A DNA stretch of 64,000 nt from an uncultured Roseburia sp. GTDB taxonomy: Bacteria > Bacillota > Clostridia > Lachnospirales > Lachnospiraceae. Each line of letters starts with the position of its first letter. The stretch's first letter is position 1. The DNA lies in NCBI GenBank assembly GCA_934358955.1, contig CAKRLC010000001.1, forward strand, positions 1 to 64,000, in the 5' to 3' direction. Below, in pieces: positions 31,699 through 58,824 of this stretch. Below the pieces are notes generated by a model. It searched no databases and was not told where the DNA came from. It was given only the letters and a program-made list of their open reading frames with translations. The translations under genes and the position numbers were made by a program.

Positions 31699-31746
31699 GC
31701 AATCTGCCAGCATAAAGTTAAAGACAGACTTTTTGACACCCGAATC
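31699..31746. repeat. Solo arm of the palindrome family
   Basis: These 48 bases align with the right end of the large palindrome at 37553-37830 (37761-37806): both run from GCAAT through CCA and AAAGTTA to TTTTTGACACCCGAATC. No matching left arm was found nearby, so this is a decayed or partial copy. Confidence 0.6.
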
Positions 31747-36208: not shown

Positions 36209-36260
36209 GTATTAGCAGATTGCAAAAAGAAACCTGAACTATTTTTGCAATCTCTAATAC
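36209..36260. repeat. Stem-only miniature palindrome between convergent genes
   Basis: GTATTAG and AGATTGCAAAAA pair with TTTTTGCAATCT and CTAATAC around a 13-base loop. The inner arm resembles the AGATTGTAAAAAGAAA arm of the copy at 44017-44253. The right end includes the stop codon of the PHP gene. It may terminate both genes. Confidence 0.6.
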
Positions 36261-37045
36261 CAAAATACGGAACCTGCATATTTTTGGGCAAGCCGGATAC
36301 AGCCCTGATAAGATGCAAGATCAGCATAATCCTCTGGATGATGCGCATCTACACCGATTATGAAATCGTTTCCGTTAGCTGCCGCAATTTTTATAAAACG
36401 TTCATCCGGATAATTGCATTTTTCACGGAAACCATTTACATTGATCTCAACCGGGATCTGCTCCTGCTTTAAGCGCTGCACTAATTTGTCCATGTATGTT
36501 GCATACAGACTGTTATCTCCCACAAAACCAAGAATGTCAGGGTGAGCAACAAGATCAAAACATCCGGTATCCAACGCCTCAAAAAGAAGGGACAGATAAC
36601 GGTTTAAGTGTGCTTCGTCAGTCCAGTCTTTGCGCACACTGATAAAATGATCTTCTTCCGGAAAGAAGTGCTGTGCTAACAGCATATAATCCAGGGGATA
36701 TTGTTCTATCTCATGGATCGTCGGTTCAAAAATATCCGGAAAGTATTCCATTTCCAATGCTGAAAGAATGGTAATTTCGTTTTTATATTCTGCTTTCAGC
36801 TTCTCGATTGTATCTACATAATTTTCCAATTCATTCATTTTCATCCGTATCGTTGAGACAAAGCCATTTTTGAACAAATACGGGGAATGGTCTGAAAATC
36901 CTATGACCTCAACCCCCTGTTCTAAGGCTGCCTCCACATACTCACGTTCTTCGCCGGAAGCATGCTGGCATCTTTTTGTATGCGAATGAAAATTGCATTT
37001 TTTTGATTTGTAATCTGAACTGTTAAAAGAATGAATCCGTTTCAT
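36254..37045 (-). CDS. PHP-domain histidinol-phosphatase-like phosphoesterase
   Basis: 263 residues. PHP-family metal-binding motifs are present: NFHSHTKRCQHASGEEREY, GFSDHSP, LSALEMEYFPD, LVAHPDILGF and VDAHHPEDYAD. This is the HisK/HisJ type. The his operon at 12328-18694 lacks a phosphatase domain on HisB, so this gene could supply histidinol phosphatase activity, but it is not in the operon and the substrate is inferred. Confidence 0.85.
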   Translation of the reverse strand: MKRIHSFNSSDYKSKKCNFHSHTKRCQHASGEEREYVEAALEQGVEVIGFSDHSPYLFKNGFVSTIRMKMNELENYVDTIEKLKAEYKNEITILSALEMEYFPDIFEPTIHEIEQYPLDYMLLAQHFFPEEDHFISVRKDWTDEAHLNRYLSLLFEALDTGCFDLVAHPDILGFVGDNSLYATYMDKLVQRLKQEQIPVEINVNGFREKCNYPDERFIKIAAANGNDFIIGVDAHHPEDYADLASYQGCIRLAQKYAGSVFWY

Positions 37046-37101
37046 AATCTTACTCTCACTTTTTTGATATTTATTATTAATGATGCACTAGCTGGATGTC
37101 T

Positions 37102-37323
37102 GGGCAGAATGTATGCTTATAAACAGTTTGATAACAGATTACGTAAAAGAAATATTTTATGTTTCTCTTTTGTGCAATGGAGATAAGACTCATGAATCGT
37201 GGAAGCCTTTGCTGAACACGATTCATGTTTTCAGAGGCTTATCGAAATGTTTTGCACAATGAAACAAAAAATATTTCTTTTACGTAATCTGATCGAAATA
37301 ATGGAAATACATACATTCTGCCC
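37102..37323 (+). repeat. Palindrome family copy 1, full length
   Basis: Nested inverted repeat of 222 bp. Outer arms GGGCAGAATGTATG (37102-37115) and CATACATTCTGCCC (37310-37323) are perfect. The second stem is 37135-37165 with 37261-37291. Further in, TGTGCA/TGCACA and GATAAG/CTTATC pair around conserved internal loops. The apical stem CATGAATCGTG/CACGATTCATG encloses the loop GAAGCCTTTGCTGAA (37202-37216). It lies in the 834-base gap 37046-37879 together with copy 2; the sequence between the copies (37324-37552) is AT-rich with nothing recognised. Confidence 0.85.
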
Positions 37324-37552
37324 GATTTTTTTCGGTACAGCTTATGATACGCTTATTTTTTTTAGAATGTCAAGTCATAACACAGATGTTATATTCTCAA
37401 AATCACGATTGGCAAAGCTATCCTAAATTTTGAAAATATAGCAAAAAATGCATGTGTATCTTTTTGTTTTCTTCATATACTACCATTGAACAAACAAAAA
37501 GAAATTTTTGAATGTTCTCTAAACGAAGAATATGCTTGCACATTCTTGCAGA

Positions 37553-37830
37553 GCAATTTTTTACATTACAGGATTCGGGTGTCAAAAGATCTGCTTTTTA
37601 GTTTAGTGGAGTCAAATTGCACAAAAAAATATTGCAAGTTTCATTGTGCAAACATTCCGATAAGCCTCTGAAAACGTGAATCGTGTTCAGCAAAGGCTTC
37701 CACGCTTCATGAGTCTTATCTCCATTGCACAAAGAGAAACTTTTCATATTTCTTTTGCGCAATTTACCAATAAAAGTTATGGAGCAGATTTTTTGACACC
37801 CGAATCATTACAGGCAATGTAAAAAATTGC
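37553..37830 (-). repeat. Palindrome family copy 2, full length, inverted relative to copy 1
   Basis: 278 bp. Perfect 15-base outer arms GCAATTTTTTACATT (37553-37567) and AATGTAAAAAATTGC (37816-37830). Next in are GATTCGGGTGTCAAAA and TTTTTTGACACCCGAATC, then TCTGCT/AGCAGA. The core matches copy 1 on the opposite strand, with the loop TTCAGCAAAGGCTTC (37686-37700), the reverse complement of the copy 1 loop. This copy has the longest preserved ends. It is immediately upstream of the SASP gene. Confidence 0.85.
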
Positions 37831-37879
37831 GGGCGCATAAGAAAAAAATGGAGTCAGAAAACAAAGGAGGGTTTTTATC

Positions 37880-38086
37880 ATGACAGGACGTTCATCTAAC
37901 AAAGCAGCTGTTCCGGAAGCCAAAAGTGCATTAGACAGATTTAAGTATGAGGTAGCCGGTGAACTCGGTGTTCCGTTAAAAGACGGTTATAACGGTGATC
38001 TTACTTCCCATCAGAACGGATCTGTTGGTGGGTATATGGTCAAAAAAATGATCGAGGCCCAGGAACAGCAGATGGCAGGAAAATAA
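37880..38086 (+). CDS. Alpha/beta-type small acid-soluble spore protein
   Basis: 68 residues, usual SASP size. Family motifs are KYEVAGELGVPLKDGYNGDL, containing the GPR protease cleavage region, and GSVGGYMVKKMIE. SASPs coat spore DNA and protect it from UV and heat. AAAGGAGG precedes the ATG. A SigG promoter would be expected, but none could be recognised; the upstream 50 bases are occupied by the end of palindrome copy 2. Confidence 0.96.
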   Translation: MTGRSSNKAAVPEAKSALDRFKYEVAGELGVPLKDGYNGDLTSHQNGSVGGYMVKKMIEAQEQQMAGK

Positions 38087-38150
38087 ATTTTCCGAAAATA
38101 AATTTTCCGAAAATAAATTTTCCAAAAATAAATTTTCCGAAAAAGAATTT
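38083..38150. repeat. 15-bp tandem repeat after the SASP gene
   Basis: Four complete units of ATAAATTTTCCGAAA (one with CCAAAA) and a partial fifth. The first unit contains the SASP stop codon. Each unit holds GGAAAAT/ATTTTCC, which can pair with its neighbours. Probably a slippage-generated array. Confidence 0.9.
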
Positions 38151-38156
38151 TTATGC

Positions 38157-38194
38157 CAAAAACGGGACGGACACAGATTCTGTGCCTGTCCCGT
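38157..38194 (-). terminator. Terminator of panE
   Basis: ACGGGAC and CACAG pair with CTGTG and GTCCCGT (38162-38194). On the minus strand TTTTTGG follows. It could also stop SASP transcription, but no T-run follows on the plus strand. Confidence 0.8.
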
Positions 38195-38258
38195 ACATAG
38201 TTTCAGGAGTAGTTCCTTTCCTGGTTCTGCAGTGATAGAACATTCTAATTGTCTTTCA

Positions 38259-44016: not shown

Positions 44017-44253
44017 GATCCAGGTATCGAGCGGTCTGCTTCATAACCTTTATTAATAGATTGTAAAAAGAAATATTCCAGGTTTCTCTTTTGTGCAATG
44101 AAAATAAGACTCATGAAGCGTGGAAGCTTTTGCTGAACACGCTTCACGCTTTCAGAGGCTTATCGGAATGTTTTGCACAATGAAACCTGGAATATTTCTT
44201 TTTTACAATCTACCAACAGAAACTTAAATGCAGACCGTTGGATATGAGGATAC
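44017..44253 (+). repeat. Palindrome family copy 3, full length
   Basis: 237 bp between the rpmB terminator and a small membrane-protein gene, filling the 307-base gap. Stem 44058-44086 pairs with 44182-44211 almost perfectly. The apical stem GAAGCGTG/CACGCTTC (44115-44122, 44138-44145) encloses GAAGCTTTTGCTGAA. The outer region has GGTCTGC/GCAGACC and degenerate ends related to the GATTCGGGTGTC end of copy 2. Compared with copy 1, paired positions change together. Confidence 0.85.
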
Positions 44254-58526: not shown

Positions 58527-58560
58527 ACGTTAGTGTGATAAAGTGTTAAAAAGATGTGAC

Positions 58561-58785
58561 AGTCAATAGATTTGCTTTTAGTAAACTGTGGCAGTCAGCA
58601 TACATAAAATAAATAGTTCCAGTTTCATTGCGCAAAACATTCCGATGAGCCTCAGTACAACAGATGATATCAGCAATGGCTTCTATCATCTGTTTGAGTC
58701 TCATCTCCATTGCGCAAGGAGAAACTGGAACTATTTATTTTATGTATGCTGACATTACAGTCTAGAAAAAGCTATTCTATTGACT
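58561..58785 (-). repeat. Palindrome family copy 4, full length, beside the recombinase cluster
   Basis: 225 bp in the 376-base gap between proB and the first recombinase gene. A perfect 33-base inverted repeat at 58594-58626 and 58721-58753 forms the middle stem, with outer AGTCAATAGA/TCTATTGACT arms. The apical stem ACAGATGATA/TATCATCTGT differs entirely from the other copies, yet the loop in the sense orientation is GAAGCCATTGCTGA. Internal TGCGCA/TGCGCA and GATGAG/CTCATC replace TGTGCA/TGCACA and GATAAG/CTTATC of copy 1. The remaining 39 bases before the recombinase stop are AT-rich. Confidence 0.88.
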
Positions 58786-58824
58786 ATAAAAGTTTTTAAG
58801 CAGCTTTTTTGACATAAGTATCAT

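What the first reader, a model, noticed from the sequence alone, without database searches (positions are those of the whole stretch)
37102..37830. Two full-length copies of a long nested palindrome with a conserved apical loop and covarying stems
Copies at 37102-37323 and 37553-37830 lie in opposite orientation in one 834-base gap. Each folds as outer stem, middle stem, internal loops, apical stem, and a 15-base loop reading GAAGCCTTTGCTGAA. Compared with the copies at 44017 and 58561, the stems change sequence while pairing is kept: GAATCGTG/CACGATTC to GAAGCGTG/CACGCTTC, TGTGCA/TGCACA to TGCGCA/TGCGCA, GATAAG/CTTATC to GATGAG/CTCATC. The loop and internal loops stay constant. That is the reverse of what neutral decay gives. 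Either a structured RNA is selected, or a hairpin-type mobile DNA element is kept palindromic by arm-to-arm copying. I do not recognise it as a named family.
Basis: partly seen in the sequence, partly recalled or inferred. Interest (0 to 1): 0.88.

Follow-up and report, generated by a model that had tools for sequence, protein, structure and literature searches.

The report
Palindromic mobile element with rewritten arms
The two hairpins look like copies of an undescribed small mobile DNA element of gut bacteria whose two mirror-image arms change together, which imitates the signature normally taken as proof of a functional RNA.

Summary
Four copies of a long nested hairpin lie in the window; 76 more were found in genome contigs, mostly Lachnospiraceae. 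Covariation is strong: 18 of 28 core pairs change on both sides, which 0 of 500 shuffles reach. Yet mismatches are symmetric (arms of 157 copies: G·U 183, A·C 208; core of 155: 22 and 14), while 10 tRNAs give 20 and 0. At 14 loci shared with a sister species 52 base pairs changed on both sides, 30 by transversion, 44 of them in three loci: punctuated rewriting of both arms. Best reading: a palindromic MITE whose arms are kept complementary at DNA level, probably by replication template switching, around a constrained tip. Copy 2 is a complete insertion with 15-bp terminal repeats and a 9-bp duplication, placed in a small hairpin. The same ends flank Rfam's candidate RNA TwoAYGGAY (RF01731) in 10 of 30 loci examined, 7 of them in one genome, so a published 'covarying RNA' rides in the same kind of element. 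Transposase, expression and the role of the tip remain unknown.

The parts
37102..37323 (+). copy c1: nested hairpin; core 37154-37269; loop GAAGCCTTTGCTGAA 37202-37216
   Evidence: 121.1 bits with the family model; c1 is in the model's own training set
37573..37805 (-). copy c2, complete element: 15-bp terminal inverted repeats ATTCGGGTGTCAAAA at 37573-37587 and 37791-37805; core 37634-37748; loop 37686-37700
37564..37572 (.). left target-site duplication CATTACAGG of c2
37806..37814 (.). right target-site duplication CATTACAGG of c2
37816..37830 (.). right arm of the target-site hairpin (AATGTAAAAAATTGC)
44017..44250 (+). copy c3: core 44075-44190; outer repeats CGGTCTGC 44032-44039 and GCAGACCG 44230-44237; loop 44123-44137
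58544..58802 (-). copy c4: core 58618-58733; perfect 33-bp inner arms 58594-58626 and 58721-58753
31731..31745 (-). solitary terminal repeat ATTCGGGTGTCAAAA, perhaps the remnant of a decayed copy
   Evidence: stretch folded; no family-model hit there

Best explanation
Each hairpin is a copy of a non-autonomous palindromic transposable element (MITE) of Lachnospiraceae. It inserts between genes; in some lineages the ends are ATTMGGGTGTCAAAAG with a duplication of about 9 bp. Its tip is a constrained folded segment (GGA/GGA internal loop, GATGAG/CTCATC stem, one-sided bulge, tandem-GA tip). The two arms are kept complementary at DNA level: at some loci changes reach both arms together, in bursts. 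I infer replication template switching (quasipalindrome copying): one arm serves as template for the other, which rewrites and now and then extends the palindrome into the flank. Shown: the family, its covariation, the ends and duplication of c2, one locus with and without a copy, symmetric mismatches, concerted punctuated arm change. Inferred: template switching as the agent, and that the tip is read as folded single-stranded DNA by the enzyme that moves it.
For: Mismatches: arms of 157 unique copies, Watson-Crick 7975, G·U 183, A·C 208, other 675 (p = 0.22 for asymmetry); core stems of 155 copies, 2741 / 22 / 14 / 13 (p = 0.24); control: 10 distinct tRNAs in the loci then held, 201 / 20 / 0 / 0. 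Shared loci: 14 between C. comes (G001) and its sister genome G238; 52 double changes (22 transitions, 30 transversions) and 54 one-sided changes; 44 of 52 double changes in 3 loci, variance/mean 10, 0 of 20000 even-spread simulations as high. Arms at shared loci are either 0.86-1.0 alike or 0.56-0.67, the range of best matches between unrelated copies (0.44-0.69). Mobility: 9-bp duplication at c2; repeats and duplications in Blautia sp. An249 (by eye); second copy of C. comes locus L127 absent in G238 (gap 470 against 108; junction read by eye). Flank capture: in L037 about 40 bp that include the last seven codons and stop of the neighbouring 433-codon ORF recur inverted on the far side.
Against: No transposase with these ends was found; the one lead, a PF12784 ORF (27.8 bits, cut-off 27.4) beside a single end in L261, was not followed. 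Both ATTMGGGTGTCAAAAG ends (at least 13 of 16) are present in only 10 of 161 copies (random positions 18 of 4000); other lineages have other ends. Template switching was not seen in the act, and the source of new arm sequence is unknown: a 111-base arm was found nowhere else in its genome but in its partner arm. 8 of 14 shared loci show no double change and 12 of 14 some one-sided change, so plain decay also occurs; one-sided changes are uneven too (variance/mean 3.5), mostly at two loci where the 5' arm hardly aligns. The copies counted are related, not independent. Template switching should also mend the conserved internal loops, so selection on the tip must be added.
Confidence: 0.62

Rival explanations
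1. A structured non-coding RNA: the hairpin is selected as transcript (RNase III substrate, protein-binding RNA or leader) and covaries by compensatory substitution.
For: Strong covariation, constant unpaired GGA/GGA and tip; close kin by its ends is the candidate RNA TwoAYGGAY; the core shows a slight, non-significant G·U surplus, 22 to 14.
Against: No G·U excess in arms and none significant in the core, against 20 to 0 in tRNAs; 30 of 52 double changes are transversions, which no G·U step can bridge; no fixed orientation to neighbour ORFs in 56 copies (17 same/same, 15 opposite/opposite, 14 same/opposite, 8 opposite/same, 2 with one side unassigned); arms up to 109 kept pairs.
Confidence: 0.14
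2. The arms are selected, not copied: a folded single-stranded DNA hairpin is the substrate of an unknown transposase or recombinase, and only copies with paired arms persist or move.
For: Predicts the same symmetry of mismatches and the conserved unpaired tip.
Against: Copies present in both species are still well paired although they need not have moved; 13-16 pairs rewritten at single loci with 1-2 one-sided changes is hard by stepwise selection.
Confidence: 0.16
3. The rewritten loci are replacements: a different copy of the family replaced the old one at the same site (re-insertion, or conversion from another strain's allele).
For: Rewritten arms are no more alike than unrelated copies (0.56-0.58); the core of L160/L166 is only 0.85 identical.
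Against: Locus-specific sequence just outside the arms is shared at L160/L166; cores of L133/L171 and L205/L196 are 0.97 and 0.96 identical; no donor with the same arms among the 60 arms compared, which do not cover other strains.
Confidence: 0.1

Closest known systems
TwoAYGGAY candidate RNA, Rfam RF01731 (listed in PMC2864571 as probably RNA, probably not cis-regulatory; two passages read)
   Same: In 10 of 30 loci examined (30 of 126 matches were fetched) it lies between the same ends, at least 13 of 16 on both sides, at near-fixed distances of about -72 and +58; 7 of the 10 are in genome G182. Long palindromic arms, many copies per genome (62 in G003, 32 in G128, 23 in G182), five close minus/plus pairs in G003; arms G·U 78, A·C 55 (p = 0.056).
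   Different: The centre is different (two GGAUG-loop hairpins); the window has no RF01731 match; none of the 7 G003, 4 G163 and 3 G172 loci examined shows both ends.
Bacterial palindromic MITEs such as ERIC, Correia/NEMIS, QMITE (review PMC10969869, passages read)
   Same: Short, without transposase gene, terminal repeats, intergenic, target duplication (7-9 bp in QMITE2), stable fold.
   Different: No parent IS identified; arms differ in sequence between copies of one genome and change in concert; conserved folded tip. Whether the named families do the same was not tested.
Quasipalindrome / template-switch mutation (PMC8794818: abstract, outline and passages; PMC8604942: abstract and outline)
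   Same: Double changes without intermediates; arm homogenisation; can create perfect stems in one event.
   Different: Those papers treat RNA genes and yeast coding DNA; here it would act repeatedly on a dispersed mobile family with a fixed tip.
REP/RAYT elements and integron attC sites (recalled, not searched as families)
   Same: Palindromes whose folded single strand is the functional form.
   Different: Much longer arms; conservation at the apex instead of the base; no Y1 transposase or integrase was looked for.

Membership tests
MITE (non-autonomous transposon) | terminal inverted repeats | tested here: met
   c2: 15/15 bp; 10 of 161 copies have both ends at 13 of 16 or better against 18 of 4000 random positions; other lineages have other or decayed ends
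MITE (non-autonomous transposon) | target-site duplication | tested here: met
   c2 CATTACAGG on both sides; Blautia L104 TGTAATAGG, L003 CCTATTAC (by eye); not seen at the C. comes empty site
MITE (non-autonomous transposon) | dispersed copies; locus with and without insertion | tested here: met
   44, 7, 18, 9, 11 and 18 copies in six genomes chosen because they had hits; one presence/absence locus (junction by eye); two other candidates (L128/L199, L141/L192) were not clean
MITE (non-autonomous transposon) | autonomous partner with the same ends | tested here: inconclusive
   20 end-bearing regions of up to 2.8 kb (four cut to under 400 bases by contig ends): no ORF recognised as transposase by eye except L261, PF12784 'nuclease family transposase' at 27.8 bits beside a single end (7 ORFs tested); 7 PF13751 loci without both ends
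TwoAYGGAY RNA (RF01731) | covariance-model score of at least 43 bits | tested here: not met
   no match in the window nor at E up to 10 over 37080-37860
structured non-coding RNA | compensatory covariation | tested here: met
structured non-coding RNA | G·U tolerated more than A·C | tested here: not met
   control. In one search the anchors favour consensus in the GATGAG/CTCATC stem and the apical register was chosen for best pairing, so the core counts are conservative on mismatches of both kinds
structured non-coding RNA | expression as a defined transcript | not testable with these tools
   no RNA-seq held
REP/RAYT | Y1 (REP-associated) transposase with GTAG-type hairpins | not tested
   not searched; hairpins here are 200-300 nt, not 20-40 (length of REPs from the abstract of PMC3733652 in the listing)

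The most novel reading that the evidence does not exclude
This family and TwoAYGGAY are exchangeable folded centres of one superfamily of palindromic elements, and their covariation is written by an active arm-copying process coupled to the element (an unknown hairpin-reading enzyme or targeted template switching) that rewrites both arms in single events. If so, at least one Rfam candidate RNA rests on DNA-level covariation, and the arms are a natural hotspot of templated mutation.
Probability: 0.3. Interest if true: 0.85.

Novelty: new variant of a known kind. Interest (0 to 1): 0.66.

Why it matters
Covariation is the standard proof that a bacterial intergenic hairpin is a functional RNA. 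Here a large family passes that test while the mismatch symmetry and the transversion-rich, bursty double changes point to DNA. Counting G·U against A·C and transitions against transversions gives a simple filter for RNA discovery. The C. comes / sister-species pair supplies natural replicates of arm rewriting, so template switching as the keeper of palindromes becomes directly testable. The shared ends tie a published orphan RNA, TwoAYGGAY, to a mobile element.

Tried and rejected
Rejected: terminators or cis-regulators (no fixed orientation to ORFs in 56 copies; one terminator-like site in 36900-38200, at 36953-36969 and not in a copy, against 1.0 expected). Arms as captured foreign or 'guide' sequence (a 111-base arm of L146 matches only its own two arms in G003; one arm tested). 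Phage or plasmid origin (c1 alone searched: no match in phages or plasmids; the single viral pattern hit L001 shows no such hairpin; the second viral pattern gave 0). A shared neighbour gene: clusters of 1227 ORFs gave transporters, two-component systems and the like among the 18 largest clusters, judged by eye. An IS1182-type partner, a guess from recall. Insertion into the loop of pre-existing palindromes as the general source of arms: fits c2's site, but not loci whose arms changed in place.

Weak spots. 18 of the 98 pattern hits were dropped as chance because they lack the upstream core; that was judged by eye. A filter lost 7 true copies, restored. Fifteen shared loci were tried and one (first copy of L126/L202) dropped because its G238 core was not recognised. 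Four further probable shared loci, seen by arm likeness alone (L137/L191, L158/L169, L124/L170, L206/L201; 0.94-1.0), are not in the count of 14, so the rewritten share is nearer 3 of 18. In one search the pairs L135/L172 and L138/L195 gave 0 and 5 comparable positions; one search used a four-way alignment instead, where L138/L195 is mostly gaps. The arm count (190 to 204) included loose distal alignment; one search is the strict one. The family survey (15 of 299 genomes) used stricter filters with at most 12 candidates scored per genome. The terminal-repeat survey has a high background, see the report. The G·U/A·C test of TwoAYGGAY is borderline (78 to 55, p = 0.056). In one search the output was cut; only the L037 case is used. 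An automatic first look for RNA families in nine further loci gave only sub-threshold matches.

Literature: no paper on this family was recognised in the listings of searches of an open-access library; subscription papers are not held, so this is weak evidence of novelty. PMC10434271, PMC6649704 and PMC2267715 were seen in search listings only.

Full report
WHAT IS THERE. Two hairpins of 222 and 233 bp lie in opposite orientation between a PHP-domain gene (36254-37045, minus) and a gene for a small acid-soluble spore protein (37880-38086, plus). Two more copies lie at 44017-44250 and 58544-58802. All four score 98.8 to 121.1 bits with a family model that was itself trained on them. Chance does not give this: the two-part core pattern occurs 4 times in the window and 0.00 times on average in 100 shuffles.

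COPY 2 IS A COMPLETE INSERTION. It is bounded by ATTCGGGTGTCAAAA and its reverse complement and flanked on both sides by CATTACAGG. Beyond the duplication stands GCAATTTTTTACATT...AATGTAAAAAATTGC, so the empty site would be a 15-bp hairpin with a 6-base loop. A third ATTCGGGTGTCAAAA at 31731 has no partner within 2 mismatches nearby.

THE FAMILY. A scan of GTDB species genomes for the loop plus the 3' core gave 91 stretches. I judged 17 of them chance; the other 74 hold 76 copies. Titles were printed for 80 stretches only; the real ones there are Lachnospiraceae (Coprococcus comes, Blautia, Roseburia, Hespellia and others), Clostridium, Eubacteriales or unnamed bacteria. Six genomes chosen for having hits hold 44, 7, 18, 9, 11 and 18 copies. 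In an even draw from the family 15 of 299 genomes have a match (strict filters).

ANATOMY. From base to tip: copy-specific arms; a short stem ending in N/N' that covaries through all four pairs (UA 18, AU 17, GC 13, CG 5 of 58); AU/AU; a GGA/GGA internal loop; GATGAG/CTCATC; an A·G mismatch; CTC/GAG and variants; an unpaired stretch on the 3' side only; the apical stem; GA/GA; AGC-NNNN-GCT. Weaker copies in Lachnospiraceae 28-4 have a different tip. No Rfam family matches this core at its cut-off in the loci searched, nor credibly at E up to 10 in 37080-37860.

COVARIATION IS REAL. Over 58 non-redundant copies 18 of 28 pairs carry double changes, 97.0% of cells pair, and none of 500 shuffles reaches the observed values.

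BUT IT DOES NOT LOOK LIKE RNA. In an RNA stem a G·U is tolerated and an A·C is not; a palindrome of double-stranded DNA cannot tell them apart. Arms of 157 unique copies: 183 G·U, 208 A·C. Core stems of 155 copies: 22 and 14. Ten distinct tRNAs in the loci then held: 20 and 0. Core against tRNA differs with Fisher p = 0.0009, arms (the looser count) against tRNA with p = 1e-6. The copies are related, so these p values are only a guide.

ARMS CHANGE TOGETHER, IN BURSTS. Genome G238 is a sister of C. comes; 26 of the 28 flanks at the 14 shared loci are 0.85-1.00 identical, two are 0.44. Three loci (L133/L171, L160/L166, L205/L196) carry 16, 15 and 13 double changes with 2 one-sided changes each; two more carry 4 and 3, one carries 1; eight carry none. 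In all: 52 double and 54 one-sided changes; the doubles are 22 transitions and 30 transversions. Arm similarity between shared loci is two-peaked, 0.86-1.0 or 0.56-0.67 (four further probable shared loci there, 0.94-1.0, were not in the count). Two neighbouring C. comes copies (both in L130) share inner arms and have different, yet self-complementary, outer arms. Copy 2 of L146 has arms of unique sequence: a 111-base arm matches itself and its partner (89%) and nothing else in the genome.

MOBILITY. The second copy of C. comes locus L127, directly upstream of what reads as a ribosome-binding site, is absent in G238 (gap 470 against 108). The aligner did not resolve the junction; I read it by eye and saw no duplication there. 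Blautia sp. An249 has near-identical copies at several sites with the ATTMGGGTGTCAAAAG ends, and internally deleted ones; there the pattern with up to 2 mismatches gives 18 matches, the backwards control 1. Over the family 32 of 250 genomes match with up to 1 mismatch, but the backwards control matches in 17 of 250, so single matches mean little; ten genomes have three or more, up to 36. In four of 20 regions fetched both ends are seen, 100 to 293 bases apart, around other centres. One more such element lies in a phage contig with CCATATAA on both sides (by eye).

THE LINK TO TwoAYGGAY. One such element, L264 (the same place as L295), contains Rfam RF01731 at 109.3 bits. RF01731 has 62, 32, 23, 4, 3 and 2 matches in 6 of 11 genomes searched, 126 in all, one of them below the cut-off. 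Of the 30 loci fetched, 10 have both ends at 13 of 16 or better at nearly the same distances: 7 of 7 in G182, 2 of 7 in G128, 1 of 2 in G168, 0 of 14 in the other three genomes; random positions give 18 of 4000. Its arms show 78 G·U and 55 A·C (p = 0.056). So a published candidate RNA sits, in some genomes, inside an element with the same ends as window copy 2. PMC2864571 lists TwoAYGGAY as probably RNA; no word beginning with 'transposon' or 'mobile' occurs in its main text.

MECHANISM. The simplest account has two layers. The tip is under selection for a fold, since internal loops stay while stems covary. The arms are kept equal by copying one from the other at replication. That such copying occurs, repairs stems and makes multi-base changes is described for RNA genes and yeast (PMC8794818, PMC8604942). 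It also explains inverted capture of flank: in L037 about 40 bp, including the last seven codons and stop of a 433-codon ORF, recur inverted across the element. What supplies new arm sequence at the rewritten loci is not explained, and no enzyme is identified; the one lead is a PF12784 ORF beside a single end in L261.

NOVELTY. I recognised no description of this family in the listings of searches (open-access papers only). MITEs with stable folds are known; a family with in-place concerted arm rewriting and ends shared with an Rfam candidate RNA is, as far as I could check, a new variant.

Noticed in passing
L264:169-334 (minus; same place as L295); L284, L288, L289, L292, L300, L304, L306, L307, L310: Rfam TwoAYGGAY (RF01731) lies inside elements with ATTMGGGTGTCAAAAG terminal repeats at about -72/+58; it is multi-copy in several genomes of the family.
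   Followed up: partly
L253:2303-2574, L255:140-411 (genome G172): A further palindromic element with the same ends and a different folded centre; shorter elements with these ends occur in L259 and L273.
   Followed up: partly
L273 (IMG/VR 2563367179), around 1571-1700: An element of about 130 bp with these ends sits in a phage contig, with CCATATAA on both sides.
   Followed up: no
G001 C59, C21, C86 (two), C43, C54; G003 C1, C2 (two), C4: These close pairs of copies are in minus-then-plus order, 250-800 bp apart; the window pair is plus-then-minus. The bias is unexplained.
   Followed up: no
L127:2230-2600: A second copy sits between FabG-like and FabF-like genes (names recalled from the sequence), just upstream of a ribosome-binding site; it is absent in the sister species.
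   Followed up: partly
L261:415-840 (plus): An ORF of the PD-(D/E)XK nuclease family transposase family (PF12784, 27.8 bits, cut-off 27.4) starts about 270 bases inside a single terminal repeat.
   Followed up: no
window 37806-37880: Copy c2 ends about 75 bp upstream of the start codon of a spore-protein (SASP) gene, so it may have altered that promoter region.
   Followed up: no
window 38085-38150: Short tandem repeat of an AAATAAATTTTCCGAA-like unit just after the SASP gene (read by eye).
   Followed up: no
window 31731-31745: Solitary terminal repeat without a recognised core or second end.
   Followed up: partly
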